Positions 1,194-42,902 of a stretch of DNA of 49,587 nt are shown one piece after another (the stretch's first letter is position 1; each line of letters opens with the position of its first letter). The position numbers and the translations under genes were made by a program. The stretch comes from Paralimibaculum aggregatum. GTDB taxonomy: Bacteria > Pseudomonadota > Alphaproteobacteria > Rhodobacterales > Rhodobacteraceae. A model generated the notes under the pieces. It had not been told where the DNA came from, ran no database searches, and saw only the letters and a program-made list of their open reading frames with translations. The DNA lies in contig NZ_BSYI01000042.1 of NCBI RefSeq assembly GCF_030270585.1, positions 1 to 49,587 on the forward strand, in the 5' to 3' direction.

Positions 1194-1432
1194 GCGGCAG
1201 GGCCGCCGCCTCCCCCACCCCTGCTACGGCGCGGCGGCTGCACGGGCAGCGCGGCCCACCCACGGGAGGCGGCGGGGCTGCGCCCCTTGCCGGCGGTGCG
1301 CCCGAGGCCCGGCCGTAGCCCGGCCAAGGCGAGCGCGATCCCTGGCAGCGCCCCGGCGCGGCGTCCCGCCGCCCTTGCCGCCGCGGCGTGCAGGGGCTAC
1401 CTCCGGCGCGAAACGGTGAGGAGCCAGCCCCG

Positions 1433-2566
1433 ATGAGCAAGCGCGCGATCTTCGAGGAGACCGCAGGCCAACCCGATGGCGAGTCCGCCCCGGCCGGCGG
1501 CCGCACGCCGCCCCGGCAGGCGCCGGAGGCGCGCGGGGCCATCGCGCTCTGGCTCTGGGCGCTGGCAGCGCTGGTGGCGGTGATGGTGCTGGTCGGCGGG
1601 CTGACGCGGCTGACCGACAGCGGCCTCTCGATCACCGAATGGGACCCGGTGATGGGGGCGGTGCCGCCGCTCTCCGCCGCGGACTGGGAGGCGGCCTTTG
1701 GCGCCTACCGGGAGACCGCCGAGTTCCAGCAGCAGAACCACTGGATGACGCTGGAGCAGTTCAGGCCGATCTACTGGTGGGAATGGGGGCATCGCCAGCT
1801 CGGCCGGGTGATCGGGCTGGTCTGGGCCGCCGGCTTCCTCTGGTTCCTGGCGCGGCGGGCGATCCCGAAGGGCTGGACCGGGCGGCTGCTGCTGCCGGGG
1901 GCGCTGGGCGGGCTGCAGGGCGCGGTCGGCTGGTGGATGGTGGCCTCGGGGCTCGACCGGCTGGATGTCGCCTCCTACCGGCTGGCGACGCATCTCGGCC
2001 TCGCCTTCGTGATCTTCATGCTGCTCATCTGGTATGCGCAGCGGGTCCGGCTGGCGCCGGTGGCGCTGCTGCAGGCGCGGCGGGCGCGGCCGGCGGGCCT
2101 CGGCGGCTGGACCGGCCTGCTGGCGGCGGCGCTGCTGCTGCAGATCCTCGTCGGCGCGCTGGTCGCCGGGATCGATGCCGGGCGCGGCTTCGTCGATTGG
2201 CCGCTGATGCAGGGGCGGTTCTTCCCCGAGGGCGCGCTGGCGCTGGAGCCCTGGTGGCGCAACCTCTTCGAGAGCCCGGGGCTGGTGCAGTTCGTGCACC
2301 GGATGCTGGGCTATGCGGTGCTGGCGCTGACGCTGGCGGTGGCCTGGCGGCTCGGCAGGGCCGGGCTGGTGGCGCTGAAGGCGCGGGCGCAGTGGCTCGC
2401 CGCGGCGATGGCGGCGCAGGTGGTGATCGGCATCGTCACGGTGATGCATGCCTCGCCGCTGGAGATCGCGATCTTCCACCAGGCCGGGGCGCTGGTCGCG
2501 GTGTTCCTGCTGATGCGGGCGCGCTTCGCGGCGCTCTACCCGGCGGCGCAGCGGCTCACCGCCTGA
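1433..2566 (+). CDS. ctaA: Heme A synthase (CtaA/Cox15)
   Basis: Inner-membrane heme A synthase, which oxidises the C8 methyl of heme O to a formyl group for aa3-type cytochrome c oxidase. The 377-residue protein has about eight membrane segments after a roughly 35-residue cytoplasmic leader. Family motifs are clear: GGLTRLTDSGLSITEW near the first helix, WEWGHRQLGRVIG with a heme-ligand His, THLGLAFVIF, FVHRMLGYAV and IFHQAGALVAVFLL with the other expected ligand histidines. This is the alphaproteobacterial/mitochondrial type. The ATG at 1433 follows GTGAGGAG and agrees with the relatives' start MSKR; an upstream in-frame start is unlikely. The transcript ends facing the enoyl-CoA hydratase gene. 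Confidence 0.95.
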   Translation: MSKRAIFEETAGQPDGESAPAGGRTPPRQAPEARGAIALWLWALAALVAVMVLVGGLTRLTDSGLSITEWDPVMGAVPPLSAADWEAAFGAYRETAEFQQQNHWMTLEQFRPIYWWEWGHRQLGRVIGLVWAAGFLWFLARRAIPKGWTGRLLLPGALGGLQGAVGWWMVASGLDRLDVASYRLATHLGLAFVIFMLLIWYAQRVRLAPVALLQARRARPAGLGGWTGLLAAALLLQILVGALVAGIDAGRGFVDWPLMQGRFFPEGALALEPWWRNLFESPGLVQFVHRMLGYAVLALTLAVAWRLGRAGLVALKARAQWLAAAMAAQVVIGIVTVMHASPLEIAIFHQAGALVAVFLLMRARFAALYPAAQRLTA

Positions 2567-2589
2567 GGGCGCCGCGCCCTGCGGCGGTT

Positions 2590-2740
2590 CCGGCGGCAGG
2601 TTCGGGCGGAGGTTCGATGGGGAGATCCGGTCGGCAGGTTCGGTCAGGAGATCCGGTCGGCAGGTCCGGCTGCCGGGTTCGTCGGGTAGGTTCGGTGGGC
2701 AGGTCCGGCCGGCAGGTTCCCGCGAACATCGGTTCGCACG
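2590..2740. repeat. Degenerate short tandem repeat between convergent genes
   Basis: The 234-base gap between ctaA and the convergent hydratase gene is filled with imperfect copies of a CGGCAGGTTCGGT-like core. One 19-base block, GGAGATCCGGTCGGCAGGT, occurs exactly at 2621-2639 and 2647-2665, a period of 26 bases; weaker copies extend to about 2735. No gene or U-tract terminator is seen. It may be a decayed minisatellite; any function is unknown. Confidence 0.6.
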
Positions 2741-2800: not shown

Positions 2801-3592
2801 TCAGGCCTGCCAGTCCGGCGCGCGCTTCTCGAGGAAGGCGCGGACCCCCTCCGCGGTCTCCGGCTCGAGCATGTTCTCGGCGATCGCCCGGCCGGTGAGC
2901 GCATAGGCCTCGTCGGTGGTCATCTCGATCTGCTCGTGGAAGGCGCGCTTGCCGATGCGCACCGCGACGGCGAGCTTCGCCGCCACCCGGCCGGCCAGCG
3001 CCATCGCCTCCTCGCCGAGCCGGTCGTCCGGCACCGCGCGGTTCGCCAGCCCCTGCTCGACGGCCTGCGCCGCGTCGAGGAAATCCCCGGTGACCAGCAG
3101 CTCGAAGGCCTTCTTGCGCCCGAGATTGCGGCTGAGCGCGACCATCGGCGTCGAGCAGAAGAGCCCGATGTTCACGCCGTTGACGCCGAAGCGGGCGGTC
3201 TCGGCCGCCACCGCCATGTCGCAGGTCGCGACCAGCTGGCAGCCGGCCGCGGCGGCGATGCCGTGGACCTCGGCGATCACCGGCTGCGGCAGCATGCGGA
3301 TCCGGCGCATCACCCCCGAGCAGGTCTCGAACAGCGCCAGATAGGCCGCCCGCCCGCCATCCGCGGCGGCGCGGGCCGCCTCCATCTCGCGCAGGTCGTG
3401 CCCGGCGCAGAAGGCGCGGCCGGCGCCGCGGATCACCACGGCGCGGATCTCCGGGCTGGCCGCCAGCCGGTCGAGCTCCGCCCCGAGCGCCGCCAGCATC
3501 GCGTCGGAGAGCGCGTTCAGCGCCTCCGGCCGGTTGAGGGTGAGCCGCGCGACGCGGCCGATATCCTCCCGCAGCACCAGTGTCCCGCCCAT
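2801..3592 (-). CDS. Enoyl-CoA hydratase/isomerase family protein, ECHDC3-like
   Basis: A 263-residue crotonase-fold protein. The oxyanion-hole segments are present: FCAGHDLREM near residues 60-70 and the AAAAGCQLVATCDMAVA block in the middle. However the region that in true hydratases carries the two catalytic glutamates reads FGVNGVNIGLFCSTPMVALSR, the pattern of the ECHDC3 subgroup, in which those acids are absent. Acyl-CoA binding is therefore likely, but hydratase activity is doubtful. The ATG at 3592 follows GAGAGGAGGCC; a longer frame upstream begins with arginine-rich non-conserved sequence and was rejected. The gene is transcribed divergently from the histidine phosphatase gene and converges on ctaA. 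Confidence 0.88.
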   Translation of the reverse strand: MGGTLVLREDIGRVARLTLNRPEALNALSDAMLAALGAELDRLAASPEIRAVVIRGAGRAFCAGHDLREMEAARAAADGGRAAYLALFETCSGVMRRIRMLPQPVIAEVHGIAAAAGCQLVATCDMAVAAETARFGVNGVNIGLFCSTPMVALSRNLGRKKAFELLVTGDFLDAAQAVEQGLANRAVPDDRLGEEAMALAGRVAAKLAVAVRIGKRAFHEQIEMTTDEAYALTGRAIAENMLEPETAEGVRAFLEKRAPDWQA

Positions 3593-3741
3593 GCCGGCCT
3601 CCTCTCGCCACGGCCCGGCCTCCGGGCCCCTGCGCTTGCAATCGGGCCGCCGCCGGTCCATCACCGACGGCGCGATCGCGCCTCCCTCTCCTGCGGCAAG
3701 ACGGCGGGCGTTGCAATTCCCTCGTCGCCGCCGGAGCCGCC

Positions 3742-4398: not shown

Positions 4399-4832
4399 GC
4401 CCGCGGCAGCCGGTGCTCGATGTCGCGGCGCTCACCGCCTTCCTCGCGGAGGTCTTCCCGCAGGTGCGCGGCGAGGCGGTGATCGAGGCGGTGGGCCCCT
4501 GCACCGCGCGGCTGCGCCTCGCGGTCGCCGACCGTCACCTGCGCCCGGGCGGCACCGTCTCCGGCCCGACGATGTTCATGCTGGCGGATCTCGCCTTCTA
4601 TGTCGCGGTGCTGGCGATGATCGGCCGCGAGCCGCTGACGGTGACCACCAATCTCTCGATCAACTTCCTGCGCAAGCCGCCGCTGGCCGACCTGATCGGC
4701 GAGGCCCGCATCCTCAAGCTCGGCCGCAGCCTCGCGGTCGGCGACGTGACGCTGACCTCGGTCGAGGACCCCCGCCCGGTGGCGCATGCGAGCTGCACCT
4801 ACGCGATCCCGCCGGGGCCGCGCACGGGCTGA
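4395..4832 (+). CDS. PaaI-family hotdog thioesterase
   Basis: A 145-residue hotdog-fold protein. The segment RPGGTVSGPTMFMLADLAFYVAVLA (about 51-75) is the long central helix with the catalytic Asp/Ser region typical of the PaaI/YdiI family, followed by the antiparallel strands TTNLSINFLRKP and LIGEARILKLGRSLAVGDVTL. It should hydrolyse acyl-CoA thioesters; the chain specificity is unknown. The ATG overlaps the phosphatase stop. Downstream of its stop lies the 2.7-kb gene-free region with repeats. Confidence 0.88.
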   Translation: MSPRQPVLDVAALTAFLAEVFPQVRGEAVIEAVGPCTARLRLAVADRHLRPGGTVSGPTMFMLADLAFYVAVLAMIGREPLTVTTNLSINFLRKPPLADLIGEARILKLGRSLAVGDVTLTSVEDPRPVAHASCTYAIPPGPRTG

Positions 4833-4911
4833 GCCGGCGGCCGGCCGCCCCCCGCAGCCCCCCGCGGGCCGTGCGGCGCGCCTCCCCCGGGTCGGGGCGC
4901 GGCCCTGTTGC

Positions 4912-6560
4912 CAGACCGCCGGCCGGCTGGCACACGCCCCGTCCCCGTCCCCGTCCCCGTCCCCGTCCCCGTCTCCGTCCCCGTCCCCGTCCCGGCGGCA
5001 GCCCCCGCTGGCGCCGCACCGCTGGCCGCAATGCCCCCGCAGCGCAAACGGCAACAAAGGCCCAAGGGGAAGCCATGCCGAACACGCGGCATGCCCCCAG
5101 CGCCGCGCCCGTGCAGACCTCTGCCGGCGCCACCGCTCCCCCACCGCTCCCGGCGCGCCCGAGGAGCTGAAGCCATGCGACCACCACCACCAGGCCCTTG
5201 CCACCCGGATCGGCGCAGGCTCGAGCAGGCCTCCAGCGGCGCGCCTTCCTCGTACGCTGGCCCGCAGGAGCCGTGGGGCGGGTAGCCAGGCCGCCGGCCG
5301 GGTGGCACCCGCCCCTGTCCCCGGCGCTGACGGCGGCGCCTGATCGCAGGGCGCCGTTGGCCGCGATGTCCCCGAGGTGCAGCCGGCTGCACAGGCCCAC
5401 GGGGAGACCGCGCCGATCAAGCGGCATGCCGGCGGCGCCGCGCCCGTGCTGACCCCTGCCGGCTTGCCCGCTCCCTCGCCGCTCCTGGCACGCCCTTAGG
5501 GCCGAAGGCGGTCGGCCTCCACCACCAAGCCCTTGCCGCCCAGAACGGCGGGGGCTCGAGCTGGCCTCCAGCGGCGCGCCTTCCCTGGACGCGGGCTCGT
5601 GGGTGCCGCGGGCGGACAACCAAGCCGCCGGCCGGGCAACACACACCCCTGTTCCCCGCGCTGGCGGCGGCGCCCGCTCGCGAGGGGTCACTGGCCGCGA
5701 TGCCCCTCGCGGCGCAAAGCGGCGGCAGGGGCCCAAGGGGAGGCCGCGCCGATCACGCGGCATGCCGGCAGCGCCGCGCCCGTGCTGACCCCTGCCGGCT
5801 TGCCCGCTCCCTCGCCGATCCCGGCACGTCCGAGGGGCCGAAGGCGGGCGGCCTCCGTCGCGGCGCCCTTGCGGCATTGCTCGAAGGCAGGCTCAAGATG
5901 GCCTCTAGCGGCATGCCTTCCCTGGACGCTGGCTCGCATGAGACGTGGACGGGTAGCTTGGCGGCCGGGTCCCCTGTCACCCGCGCCGCCGGCGGCGTCC
6001 GCTGGCACCACCCCGTGGGCCGCAATGCATCCCGCGGCGCTGGTAGCGGCACAGGCACACGGGGTGGCCGCGCCGATCTAGGGGCGTGCCGGCAGCGCCG
6101 CGCCCGTGCTGACCCCTGCGGGCTTGCCCGCTCGCTCGCCGTTCCCGGCAGGCCCGAGGGGACGAAGGCGGGCGGCCCCCACCACCACACCCATGAGGCG
6201 CAGATCAACACAGGCTCGGGCTGGCCTCCTGCGGCGCGCCTTCCCTGGACGCGGGTTGGTGGGTGCCGTGGGCGGATAACCAGGCCGCCGGCCGGGTCGC
6301 ACATGCCCCTGTCTCCCGCGCTGGCGCCGCCGCGCGCTGGCGGGGCGTCACTGGCCGTGATGCCCCCGCGACGAAAAGCGGCGGCACGGGCCCAAGGGGA
6401 GGCCGCATCGATCACGCGGCATGCTGGCGGCGCTGCGCCCGTGCTGACCCCTGCCGGCTCGACCGCTCCCTCGCCGCTCCCGGTACGCCCGAGGGGCCGA
6501 AACGGGGGGCTTCACCACCACGCCCTTGCGGCGCTGTTCGAATGCGGGCGCGAGCGGCGC
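4912..6560. repeat. Array of five diverged direct repeats, about 335 bp per unit
   Basis: Five head-to-tail copies begin at about 4912, 5287, 5621, 5957 and 6281; the last is cut off near 6560. A landmark CGCCCGTGC recurs at 5106, 5441, 5777, 6101 and 6436, giving spacings of 335, 336, 324 and 335. Other shared blocks are GCCGCCGGCCGGG at most unit starts, CTGACCCCTGCCGG just after the landmark, CACCACCA in the middle and CGCGCCTTCCCTGGACGCGGG near the end. Copies are related but clearly diverged by eye. Spacings are not all multiples of three and no reading frame persists through all units on either strand, so it is probably non-coding. Unit 1 is longer because of a hexanucleotide tract. No transposase, spacer-like pattern or terminal inverted repeat was seen. 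Confidence 0.85.
4937..4990. repeat. Hexanucleotide microsatellite (CCCCGT)9
   Basis: Nine consecutive six-base units, eight CCCCGT and one CTCCGT at 4973-4978, inside the first large repeat unit. The other four large units have only one such element at this place (CCCCTGT-like), so the tract looks like a local expansion. A six-base period keeps any reading frame, but no credible protein covers it. Confidence 0.9.
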
Positions 6561-7549
6561 CATGCGATCGACCGGCCGTGCGCCGGGATCGAATGCGCGG
6601 CGCTGGCCGTCGGGCCGGCGGGCGATCGCGGCATTGGCCTTCGGAACCGCCTTGCCGCTTGACGCGGCGGATGGTGTGCGCGTCGCTGCGGCCATCCCGG
6701 AGGATGCCCGGTTTGACCCGATGGACCGTTCCGCGATGCGCGCGGCCGGCACCTGCGGCCGGGTGCTTGGCTGTGCCGGTTGGCGCGCCTTGGTTCGTCC
6801 GGTCGGGGCGGCGAGGTGCAAGGCGGACGCCATCTCCGCTGGCGCGCTCGCCCGCCCGGGCGAAGCGGTCTGCGGCGGAGCTGCGGCGCTGGGCGCTGCC
6901 GCCGCGGCGGGGCGGCACGCCGACCCGTGGCCTCGCGTGCCGTGGGCAGCTGGTCCGGCGTGCCGACCGCGCCCGGCGTGGCGGCGCCCGGATCGAAGGG
7001 GCGCTTCGCGGGCGGGTGGCGGCGCGATGCTGGGCGGGTGGTCGCCAGTGCGGTCCCTCTCGATCCCGGCGGCCTCGCGGAGATCGAGAAGGGCCGGGCC
7101 ACGCGGCTTGAGACCAGCCGATTCGCGTGGTGGCCGGCCGGCGGCACGAGACCGTCCGGCGGGGGCCGCCGGCGCGCTCCGGATGCGGCGGCGCTTTGCC
7201 GGGCGCTTCGCGGGCCGCTGCTGGTGCGTCTCCTGGCCAATGCGTTCGCCTGCGGATCGGCGATCTGCGGGGGGGCGAAGGATGCCGGGAGCCTCGCCCC
7301 TCACCCGCTCGCGCTCGTTGGCGCCCGGCCGGGCGCGTGCATCGTCATTGCCCTCCGGCACGGCGCGGCGGTTGGCGGCCGTGCCGGGCGCTGCGCCGGG
7401 ACGCGACCGCCAGCCATGCGGTGACGCGCAGCGGCGGGCACGGCTTCCGGGCCTCCGCCCGGAGACCGGCCGCGCTGCCGCCGCGCCCGGCCGCCGCTTC
7501 CGCTTGACAGGCGGCGCCGCGCGGCGGCCACTGCCCTGGCGGAGGGGCC
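6561..7549. other. Gene-free stretch downstream of the repeat array
   Basis: Nearly 1 kb between the end of the repeat array and the DUF2459 gene. Frames are open on both strands because of the high G+C, but their products are arginine/alanine/proline-rich without motifs, hydrophobic core pattern or a start with a good ribosome site. No repeat copies, hairpin with U tract, tRNA or recognisable mobile-gene remnant were seen. A TTGACA hexamer at 7504-7509 precedes the next gene but lacks a good -10 element. It could be an eroded gene region; nothing identifies what it was. Confidence 0.5.
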
Positions 7550-8260
7550 ATGGCGGCAGCAGGGCGGAGATGGCTGAGGCGCGGCGCGGCGCTGCTCGTG
7601 CTTGTGGCGGCCGCGGCCTGGGGCTCGCTCGCCCCGCGCGACCCGGCGGGCTTCCCGGCCGCGGGCGGACCGGTGGCCGTGCGGGTGCTCGACCATGGCT
7701 GGCATGCCGGGCTGGTGATGGCGACGGCGGATCTGCGCGCCGCCGCCGTCCGCCTCGCCCGCGCCCGGCCGGACCTGGCGGACCGGCTGCGCCGTCTCGC
7801 CGGCGCCTGGCCCCGGGCGCAGGCGCTGGAGATCGGCTGGGGGGATGCCGCCTTCTACCGCGCGACACCGGCGCTCGGCGACCTGCAGCCCGGGCTCGCG
7901 CTCCGCGCCGCGCTCTGGCCCACGCCCTCGGTGCTGCAGGCGGTGCCGGTCCGGCTGCCGGCGGAGGCTGCCTTTCCGCGGACGCCGGGGATCACGCTCC
8001 GGCTCTCGGAAGCCGGCTTCGCGCGGCTCGCCGCCCGCCTCGCCGAAACGCTGGCGACGGGCCCCGATGGCGGCCTCCGCCCGCTCGGCCCGAGCCTCTA
8101 CGGCCAGGGCGCCTTCCTCGCGGCGGTGCCGTCCTATCACGGGCTGCGCACCTGCAATCACTGGGTCTCCGGCCTGCTGCGCGCCGGCGGGGTGCCGAGC
8201 TCATGGGCATTCAGCGCCACGAGCGCCGGGCTGATGGCGGAGCTGCGCTGGCGGCTGTAG
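7550..8260 (+). CDS. DUF2459 (TIGR02117) family protein, predicted exported
   Basis: A 236-residue protein matching the DUF2459 family, whose function is unknown. Residues 12-28 form a hydrophobic signal/anchor (AALLVLVAAAAWGSLA). Family features visible are VRVLDHGWHAGLVM (about 44-57), LEIGWGDAAFYRA (about 95-107), VPSYHGLRTCNHWVSGLLRAGGVP (near 195-218) with the conserved Cys and His. The His/Cys arrangement suggests a papain-like (NlpC/P60-type) fold, which is an inference. The ATG follows GGAGGGG. It stands alone between the gene-free region and rplM. Confidence 0.8.
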   Translation: MAAAGRRWLRRGAALLVLVAAAAWGSLAPRDPAGFPAAGGPVAVRVLDHGWHAGLVMATADLRAAAVRLARARPDLADRLRRLAGAWPRAQALEIGWGDAAFYRATPALGDLQPGLALRAALWPTPSVLQAVPVRLPAEAAFPRTPGITLRLSEAGFARLAARLAETLATGPDGGLRPLGPSLYGQGAFLAAVPSYHGLRTCNHWVSGLLRAGGVPSSWAFSATSAGLMAELRWRL

Positions 8261-8315
8261 CGCCCCGGGTGGTTGGGGTAACAGTTTACCACACGCACAA
8301 CTCCCCCTGAAAACA

Positions 8316-8329
8316 GGCGAAATTTCGCC
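8316..8329. promoter_or_regulatory. 14-bp perfect palindrome upstream of rplM
   Basis: GGCGAAATTTCGCC is a perfect dyad in an unusually A/T-containing stretch, ending 9 bases before the proposed -35 hexamer of rplM. A second, gapped inverted repeat, GGTAA-CAGT-TTACC, lies at 8277-8290. Such dyads can bind dimeric regulators, but no protein can be named. Confidence 0.35.
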
Positions 8330-8338
8330 GGCTGCGGC

Positions 8339-8367
8339 TTGACATGGCGCGGGCGCTCGGGCAAACA
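8339..8367 (+). promoter_or_regulatory. Putative sigma-70 promoter of rplM-rpsI
   Basis: A consensus -35 TTGACA (8339-8344) is followed after 17 bases by CAAACA (8362-8367), a weak -10. The position, about 70 bases before rplM and after the upstream gene's stop, fits a ribosomal protein operon promoter with a short leader. A strong -35 with a weak -10 is common in this lineage. Confidence 0.45.
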
Positions 8368-8435
8368 CCGCGCCAATCTGCGCGGCTGCCCTTGCGGCGT
8401 CGCCGAAGGATTCGCAAGCCAAACGGATGCACCGC

Positions 8436-8906
8436 ATGAAAACCTATTCCGCAAAACCGGCGGATATCGAGAAGAAATGGCTGGTCATCGACGCCGAAGG
8501 CGTCGTGCTCGGCCGGCTCGCCTCGATCGTCGCCAACCGCCTGCGCGGCAAGCACAAGGCCACCTTCACCCCGCATATGGACATGGGCGACAACGTCATC
8601 GTCATCAATGCGGACAAGGTGCGCCTCACCGGCAACAAGCACCGCGACAAGACCTATTACTGGCACACCGGCTATCCGGGCGGCATCAAGAGCCGCACCG
8701 CCGGCCAGCTGCTCGAGGGCCGCTTCCCCGAGCGCGTCGTCACCAAGGCGGTGCAGCGCATGATGCCGGGCGGCCCGCTGTCGCGCCGCCAGCTCACCAA
8801 TCTCCGGGTCTATGCCGGCGCCGAGCACCCGCATGGCGCGCAGAACCCCGAGACGCTCGACGTGGCGGGCATGAACGCCAAGAACGCTAGAGGAGCTGCC
8901 CGCTGA
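8436..8906 (+). CDS. rplM: 50S ribosomal protein L13
   Basis: A 156-residue protein matching bacterial L13 throughout: [18 protein letters not shown] (15-32), [62 protein letters not shown] and [33 protein letters not shown]13 is an early-assembly 23S rRNA binding protein. The ATG at 8436 ([15 protein letters not shown]) is chosen over the one at 8427 because relatives start MKT. No strong ribosome site precedes it. The stop overlaps the rpsI start (TGATG), the usual L13-S9 coupling. Confidence 0.97.
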
Positions 8907-42555: not shown

Positions 42556-42902
42556 GGGGTGTCCTCGTGGCCGGGGGTCGGGGCAGGATAGAGCAGCCGG
42601 CCGCCGCTGTCGCGGGCGGCGATGCGGGCCGGGCAGGCATCGCGCGCGCCGGGGCGCCGCGCGGCGCGGGCGGCCCGGCTTCGCCCGGCCGGCACGGGCG
42701 GTTCCGCGGCGGCGGCGGCGCGGAGGGCGGCGGACCGGACGAAGGCCGAGCGGACGGGTGCTGAGCGGACGGGTGCTGAGCGGACGGGTGCCGAGCGGAC
42801 GGGTGCCGAGCGGACGGGTGCCGAGCGGATGGGGGCCGAGCGGATGGGGGCCGAGCGGATGGGGGCCGAGCGGATGGCGGCGCTGCCGGCCGCCTCAGCC
42901 AC
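42552..42902 (-). CDS. Repetitive small open frame (RSAPV/I repeats) between topA and rnr
   Basis: A 116-residue frame from a GTG at 42902, eight bases inside the end of topA, to a TGA that overlaps the rnr ATG (ATGA). Residues about 9-53 are nine pentapeptides, RSAPI then RSAPV, followed by a basic Ala/Arg stretch (AAEPPVPAGRSRAARAARRPGARDACPAR) and GRLLYPAPTPGHEDTP. No ribosome site lies before the GTG, and no other in-frame ATG exists. The double overlap suggests translational coupling, but an open frame in GC-rich repeats can arise by chance. If real, it is a disordered basic peptide. Low confidence. Confidence 0.35.
   Translation of the reverse strand: MAEAAGSAAIRSAPIRSAPIRSAPIRSAPVRSAPVRSAPVRSAPVRSAPVRSAFVRSAALRAAAAAEPPVPAGRSRAARAARRPGARDACPARIAARDSGGRLLYPAPTPGHEDTP
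42745..42879. repeat. 15-bp minisatellite, nine units
   Basis: Nine contiguous 15-base units of the form GCCGAGCGGACGGGT, drifting to GCCGAGCGGATGGGG in the last four. Two units carry GCTGAG. The unit length keeps reading frames open on both strands. It sits between topA and rnr and is likely variable in copy number. Confidence 0.92.

What the first reader, a model, noticed from the sequence alone, without database searches (positions are those of the whole stretch)
4912..6560. Five diverged 335-bp direct repeats in a gene-free interval
Seen: units begin near 4912, 5287, 5621, 5957 and 6281, with the marker CGCCCGTGC spaced 335, 336, 324 and 335. Blocks such as CTGACCCCTGCCGG and CGCGCCTTCCCTGGACG recur. 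The spacings do not keep one reading frame and no domain is encoded, so protein repeats are unlikely. The units are diverged, so they are old rather than a recent duplication or assembly artefact. Inference: this may be a family of repeated non-coding RNAs, a binding array (partition, nucleoid or origin-like) or a decayed element. It is the best candidate for an undescribed system here.
Basis: partly seen in the sequence, partly recalled or inferred. Interest (0 to 1): 0.72.

Follow-up and report, generated by a model that had tools for sequence, protein, structure and literature searches.

The report
Non-coding intergenic satellite of 335-bp units
A stretch of non-coding DNA between two genes was copied end to end several times long ago, and it looks like one of many unrelated 'satellite' arrays in this bacterium's gene-free DNA rather than a dedicated RNA or DNA-binding system.

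Summary
The array is real: five copies of a 156-nt core at spacings 335, 336, 324 and 335, TRF period 335 x 4.5, plus a more diverged sixth partial copy (4860-5048, 66-70%). It is non-coding: flat GC by codon phase, no codon-phase bias in substitutions, no Pfam or Rfam hit. RNA structure is not conserved (SCI z -1.5 to 0). u2 and u4 are sisters, suggesting a later two-unit duplication (660-nt period). Full units occur in 1 of 394 sampled family genomes, its own, and not in plasmids, phages or viral contigs. In four same-genus genomes the PaaI-rplM gap is about 150-215 bp.
What changed the reading: 800 kb of the same genome holds 12 further long-unit (>=100 nt) arrays with flat codon phase (one probably coding), without shared sequence, against 2 in 1.2 Mb of six relatives. 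So this is a large example of a genome-wide tendency to grow satellites, most likely by repeated replication or recombination error and drift. The ncRNA idea is not supported; a binding array is unlikely but not excluded.

The parts
4833..7549 (.). gene-free interval between the PaaI-type thioesterase gene and the DUF2459 gene; GC 77-85% by segment, GC flat across codon phases
4860..5048 (+). u0: left-most, most diverged partial unit (aligns with the right part of the unit, 66-70% to the four full units)
   Evidence: repeat families D4 and D6
4937..4993 (+). hexamer CCCCGT x 9.5 inside u0
5049..5383 (+). unit u1, 335 nt
5384..5719 (+). unit u2, 336 nt (reference copy)
5720..6043 (+). unit u3, 324 nt (12-nt internal gap against the others)
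6044..6378 (+). unit u4, 335 nt; closest to u2 (83% identity)
6379..6532 (+). unit u5, partial (first about 154 nt); closest to u3 (85%)
6561..7549 (.). further non-coding stretch; only short GC-rich matches in 41 genomes
7550..8260 (+). right flanking gene: DUF2459 protein
   Evidence: PF09601, E 3.6e-30
8427..8906 (+). rplM (ribosomal protein L13), next conserved gene

Best explanation
An old, lineage-specific non-coding satellite. A segment of about 335 bp of intergenic DNA was duplicated in tandem. The copies drifted apart by point mutation, with few indels. A later event probably duplicated a two-unit block (u2-u3 into u4-u5), giving the 660-nt period. The process is not specific to this sequence: the same genome has many unrelated long-unit arrays in other non-coding stretches, so the common cause is probably a tendency of this lineage to make, and fail to purge, tandem duplications (replication misalignment or unequal exchange). 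Shown: the array, its non-coding character, the sister relation of u2 and u4, occurrence at one locus in one of the genomes searched, and the excess of other arrays in sampled sequence. Inferred: the block duplication as one event, the duplication mechanism, neutrality, and that one cause underlies all arrays.
For: Periods 335 and 660. In the right part of the unit 11 sites group u2 with u4 (against u1 with u3), 2 group u1 with u2, none the third way; in the left part, where u5 is present, 3 sites group u2+u4 and u3+u5 against 1. GC by codon phase 0.776/0.754/0.768 in the array against 0.95/0.72/0.52 in the neighbouring gene. No codon-phase excess of differences in any of 10 unit pairs, p 0.2-0.94. 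No structure conservation. Full-length hits only in the own genome: 61 genomes (6 of 61 have some match, those outside the own genome 30-62 nt) and 394 sampled family genomes at E <= 1e-8. Four same-genus genomes have about 150-215 bp between the matched ends of the flanking genes. Own sample: 14 arrays of period >=100 in 800 kb, 12 phase-flat, against 2 (both flat) in 1.2 Mb of six relatives, p = 0.00061 per array; by stretch 8 of 40 against 2 of 60, p = 0.009. Best match between different arrays by score 30 nt, E 3e-5; longest of the 15 listed 75 nt at 72%. Sequence model R1 finds no further copy in the own sample (best 11.7 bits, E 0.25). TRF covers 10.1% of phase-flat DNA in the own sample against 0.1-2.7% in relatives.
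Against: One 40-nt part of the unit is a little more conserved than the rest (p = 0.035; block tests p 0.036-0.12), which could mean weak constraint. Indels between units are few (1-4 internal gap runs against 56-89 substitutions in full-length pairs). Terminator-like sites exceed shuffles in 4700-8500 (4 against 0.8 +- 0.8, two of them inside the array on the minus strand). No close relative is held, so neutrality and copy-number change cannot be observed. No repair defect was found: mutS and recJ are intact. Tandem repeats are also commoner here in DNA that is not phase-flat (1.98% against 0.29-1.10%), so the excess is not confined to intergenic DNA. The own sample is GC-richer (0.719) than the relatives' samples (0.652-0.706), a possible confounder. 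The excess rests on 15% of the genome, arrays cluster in 8 of 40 stretches, and it weakens when a probably coding array and six hand-picked stretches are dropped (6 of 34 against 2 of 60, p = 0.024).
Confidence: 0.74

Rival explanations
1. The units are a binding array for a nucleoid, partition or segregation protein; the slower-evolving stretch near the CGCCCGTGC marker is the site.
For: Blocks 57-84 and 85-112 of the unit are the least variable (7 and 9 of 28 columns), and the nearly constant unit length would suit phased binding.
Against: Full units at one locus in one of the genomes searched; heterogeneity marginal (p 0.035-0.12); other arrays of the genome share no sequence with it beyond short GC-rich matches; the immediate neighbours (thioesterase, DUF2459, rplM) are not partition genes.
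Confidence: 0.08
2. A tandem family of small non-coding RNAs.
For: Tandem 52-nt repeats of Bacillus coagulans are transcribed according to PMC8161180 (discussion read). Two terminator-like sites lie inside the array on the minus strand; 4 in the region against 0.8 +- 0.8 in shuffles.
Against: No consensus structure beyond column shuffles on either strand (14 window tests, z of SCI from -1.5 to 0.0); no Rfam match; no sigma-70-type promoter match in 4700-8500, though such promoters are a poor guide in this group.
Confidence: 0.06
3. A decayed gene for a protein with 112-residue repeats, broken by single-base deletions.
For: Two spacings are multiples of three (336, 324) and the other two are one base short (335); few indels overall.
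Against: No codon-phase signal in GC or substitutions; consensus unit GC by phase 0.83/0.79/0.78 and at least one stop in each of six frames of four tandem consensus units; no Pfam hit. A coding repeat in the same genome (L089 12661-13529) keeps a phase contrast of 0.38, although its mismatches also show no phase bias at periods 156 and 312 (p 0.64, 0.23), so the substitution test alone is weak.
Confidence: 0.07
4. Remnant of a mobile element with internal repeats.
For: About 3.6 kb lies between the thioesterase and rplM here against about 150-215 bp in same-genus genomes.
Against: No mobile gene found by Pfam in the interval, no long matches elsewhere in the genome, no plasmid, phage or viral match. 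The inverted pairs seen (25 longest of 51 listed) are 70-89% complementary GC-rich matches; one roughly brackets the array (4916-4941 with 6596-6621, 73%) but is no better than the rest. The neighbouring DUF2459 gene is shared at the same place with G008.
Confidence: 0.05

Closest known systems
Unique long-repeat satellites of prokaryotes, above all Methanobrevibacter ruminantium (Subirana and Messeguer 2019, PMC6749651; parts 1-3 of 5 of the text read)
   Same: Sequence-unrelated tandem arrays scattered through one genome; the authors judge at least half of the 36 in M. [quoted passage not shown] They also call the long-repeat satellites of Clostridium difficile unique and unrelated.
   Different: The 335-nt unit exceeds the paper's stated 10-200 nt range; this array shows a two-unit period; the host here is a GC-rich alphaproteobacterium. 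Densities cannot be compared directly: the paper uses a stricter definition (group medians 0-3 per Mb), while about 15 phase-flat long-unit arrays per Mb were counted here by TRF.
Constant-size tandem repeats of Bacillus, 52 and 20-21 nt (PMC8161180; abstract and discussion read)
   Same: Tandem arrays of unrelated sequence in one genome.
   Different: No constant unit size here: phase-flat arrays have base periods of 112, 127, 129, 135, 138, 139, 141, 152, 159, 173, 276 and 335 nt (a 126-nt array is probably coding).
Leptospira interrogans satellite families (PMC6749651)
   Same: Non-coding tandem repeats in a bacterium.
   Different: There related satellites lie at several places; here no array was found to recur elsewhere.
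Higher-order repeats of eukaryotic satellite DNA (recalled)
   Same: Nested periods: 660 over 335; elsewhere in the genome 469 over 159 and 266 over 135.
   Different: Very short arrays; no centromere role.

Membership tests
Non-coding tandem repeat array (broad kind) | Head-to-tail copies above chance | tested here: met
   TRF score 1601; shuffled control has none at period >=100
Non-coding tandem repeat array (broad kind) | Does not encode protein | tested here: met
   Flat GC phase, no Pfam, stops in each frame of the tandem consensus
Prokaryotic satellite sensu Subirana and Messeguer 2019 | At least four repeats | tested here: met
   4.5-4.6 copies
Prokaryotic satellite sensu Subirana and Messeguer 2019 | Repeat length 10-200 nt | tested here: not met
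   335 nt; limit stated in the paper, although it also lists repeats of 246-264 nt
Prokaryotic satellite sensu Subirana and Messeguer 2019 | Internal regularity score | not tested
   The methods part of the paper was not read
Constant-size Bacillus repeats | One fixed unit length with variable sequence | tested here: not met
   Unit lengths range from 112 to 335 nt in this genome's sampled arrays
Tandem non-coding RNA family | Conserved secondary structure | tested here: not met
   SCI not above column-shuffled null; low power with 4-5 sequences
Tandem non-coding RNA family | Transcription into discrete RNAs | not testable with these tools
   No expression data
Nucleoid or partition binding array | Conserved binding motif recurring across loci or species | tested here: not met
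   One locus in one of the genomes searched
Nucleoid or partition binding array | Protein binding | not testable with these tools
   Needs ChIP or pull-down

The most novel reading that the evidence does not exclude
This bacterium is a satellite-forming lineage. Extrapolating the sampled rate, it would carry some 75-80 mutually unrelated long-unit non-coding arrays, some with nested periods like eukaryotic satellites; gaps of 2-4 kb between genes consist about half of them; and two sampled same-genus relatives have none. That would imply a change in replication, recombination or nucleoid biology that lets DNA, above all intergenic DNA, grow by serial tandem duplication.
Probability: 0.4. Interest if true: 0.55.

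Novelty: new member of a known kind. Interest (0 to 1): 0.33.

Why it matters
Taken alone the array looks inert and ordinary. Its value is as a pointer: bacteria are expected to keep intergenic DNA short, yet this genome seems to hold non-coding satellites several times more often than its sampled relatives. A closely related pair with different array content could show how satellites are born, expand in blocks and decay in a prokaryote, and which repair or replication change allows it.

Tried and rejected
Coding repeats: rejected, with the caveat that the substitution-phase test also failed to flag a coding repeat (L089, p 0.64 and 0.23 at periods 156 and 312), so the GC-phase test carries the weight. 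Conserved RNA: rejected. Mobile or viral origin: no match. Other copies of the unit in the genome: only 25-53 nt matches at E 4e-5 to 5e-4; such matches also occur in other genomes, so they are taken as GC-rich noise. A remnant of the gene that G008 has at this place (a universal stress protein by my reading, recalled, not searched): none found. G-quadruplex-like motifs as the driver: not enriched, 3 in 7284 bp (0.41 per kb) of 11 arrays (10 of the own sample plus the window's; L142 left out as probably coding, L099 19323-19588 left out because its contrast rounds to 0.20) against 0.54 per kb in other phase-flat DNA. Loss of mismatch repair or RecJ: both genes intact; SbcD is over the cut-off in 1 of 13 genomes and weak or absent in the rest, so it does not set this genome apart. 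A synteny test for a second array (L134) was not possible: its neighbour (a mechanosensitive-channel-like protein by my reading, recalled) has no clear one-to-one counterpart in relatives. Literature searches: none of the titles listed is about such arrays in Rhodobacteraceae; only the best rows were listed (one search listed 20 of 327, 20 of 170), and subscription papers are mostly not held.

Full report
The observation. The five-fold repeat is in the sequence as described. The marker CGCCCGTGC stands at 5106, 5441, 5777, 6101 and 6436, and a 156-nt core occurs five times at spacings 335, 336, 324 and 335, the other four copies 76-87% identical to the reference copy. Tandem Repeats Finder reports period 335, 4.5 copies, score 1601, and period 660, 2.3 copies, 79% matches. 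On 854 kb of Markov-shuffled sequence it reports no array of period 100 or more. A sixth, older-looking partial copy lies at 4860-5048 (66-70% to the four full units) and holds a run of CCCCGT hexamers.

Anatomy and history. Full units are 73-83% identical to each other. u2 is closest to u4, and u5 closest to u3 (85% against 82% to u2). In the right part of the unit 11 sites group u2 with u4, 2 group u1 with u2 and none the third way; in the left part, which u5 shares, only 4 sites are informative, 3 of them for u2+u4 and u3+u5. This fits a later duplication of the block u2-u3 into u4-u5, with the u2-u4 half well supported and the u3-u5 half weakly. Indels are few: one 12-nt gap in u3 and otherwise 1-2 nt gaps.

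Not coding. GC content by codon phase is 0.776/0.754/0.768 in the array and 0.80/0.76/0.80 in the 989 nt that follow, against 0.95/0.72/0.52 in the thioesterase gene next to it. Differences between units show no phase bias in any of 10 pairs (p 0.2 to 0.94). None of nine long frames across the interval has a Pfam match at E <= 1; the tenth protein given, the DUF2459 gene, does. The substitution test is not powerful: it also misses a coding-like 52-residue repeat at L089 12661-13529, whose GC phase contrast is 0.38.

Not a structured RNA, no known element. Over 14 window tests on both strands the consensus fold is never better conserved than in column-shuffled alignments (SCI z from -1.5 to 0.0). 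There is no Rfam match in the window, no sigma-70-type promoter match in 4700-8500, and no match in plasmids or phages at the distant setting or for a 21-base exact pattern in viral contigs. Against this, terminator-like sites are in excess in 4700-8500 (4 against 0.8 +- 0.8), two of them in the array on the minus strand. Four to five sequences give limited power for covariation.

Where else it occurs. Full units are found only in the window's own genome: of 61 genomes 6 have some match at E <= 0.001, but outside the own genome these are 30-62 nt; of 394 sampled genomes of the family only the own has a match at E <= 1e-8. In the four same-genus genomes the matched ends of the thioesterase and rplM are about 150-215 bp apart (the gaps of G002 and G003, and of G012 from another genus, were viewed). 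In G008, of another genus, another gene (universal-stress-protein-like by my reading, recalled) and a DUF2459 relative (53% identity) lie there.

The wider pattern. I sampled 800 kb (40 stretches) of the same genome and 1.2 Mb (60 stretches) of six relatives (two of the same genus, four of other genera of the family). The own sample has 14 arrays of period 100 or more, 12 of them with flat codon phase; the relatives have 2, both flat. Per array this gives p = 0.00061, and 0.0013 without the probably coding L142. Arrays cluster, so the count by stretch is fairer: 8 of 40 against 2 of 60, p = 0.009; without L142, 7 of 40, p = 0.020; without also the six stretches chosen for weak matches, 6 of 34, p = 0.024. 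The two same-genus relatives together have 0 in 480 kb. The share of phase-flat DNA is similar (15.5% in the own sample, 12.8-17.7% in relatives), but tandem repeats cover 10.1% of it here against 0.1-2.7% in relatives; in the remaining DNA they cover 1.98% against 0.29-1.10%, so the excess is strongest in, but not confined to, non-coding DNA. The own sample is also GC-richer (0.719 against 0.652-0.706). The phase-flat arrays have different unit lengths (112 to 335 nt) and no shared sequence beyond short GC-rich matches (best by score 30 nt at E 3e-5, longest of the 15 listed 75 nt at 72%; model R1 finds no further copy in the own sample). Two further arrays have nested periods: 469 over 159 in L134 and 266 over 135 in L130. 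In L134 two arrays lie in a gap of about 4 kb between two convergent reading frames.

Interpretation. Since unrelated sequences behave alike in this genome, the cause is more likely a process than a sequence-specific function: tandem duplication by replication misalignment or unequal exchange, followed by drift. This step is inferred. mutS and recJ are intact, SbcD is weak or absent across most of the group, and G-quadruplex-like motifs are not enriched, so no cause was identified. A weak excess of conservation at unit positions about 40-80 (p = 0.035) keeps a small probability for a binding site.

Against the literature. Subirana and Messeguer (PMC6749651, parts 1-3 of 5 read) describe unique, mutually unrelated long-repeat satellites scattered in Methanobrevibacter ruminantium, at least half of them judged non-coding, and say most prokaryotes have few satellites. 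The present array is of that general kind, but its 335-nt unit exceeds their stated 200-nt limit, so it is not a member by their strict definition; it is filed under the broad kind 'non-coding tandem repeat array'. It lacks the constant unit size of the Bacillus repeats (PMC8161180, abstract and discussion read).

Verdict. Real, old, non-coding, and most likely without sequence-specific function: one of many satellites in a genome that seems prone to form them. The single array is ordinary; the genome-wide pattern is the part worth following.

Noticed in passing
L134 4765-8763 (own genome, contig C5): A gap of about 4 kb between two convergent reading frames, largely with flat codon phase, holding at least two unrelated arrays (139 x 2.0; 159 x 8.3 with a 469-nt nested period).
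   Followed up: partly
L143 15516-16602; L130 34-1448; L141 8748-9196; L099 11279-11813 (own genome): Further long-unit arrays with flat codon phase (276 x 3.8; 152 x 2.5 and 135 x 4.3; 112 x 4.0; 173 x 3.0), without shared sequence beyond short GC-rich matches.
   Followed up: partly
L089 12661-13529 (own genome): A tandem repeat of 156 nt (52 residues) with strong codon phase, also with a 312-nt dimer period; used as a coding control.
   Followed up: partly
window 2582-2719: A 13/39-nt tandem repeat (10.8 and 3.4 copies) in the gap between the reading frames 1388-2566 (+) and 2801-3664 (-).
   Followed up: no
window 42720-42874: A 15-nt repeat, about 9-10 copies, 90-96% matches; its unit length would suit an amino-acid repeat in a gene.
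   Followed up: no
G001:C33 148880-151487 (a same-genus relative): mutS matches as two overlapping-end pieces in different frames, which may be a frameshift in the gene or in the assembly.
   Followed up: no
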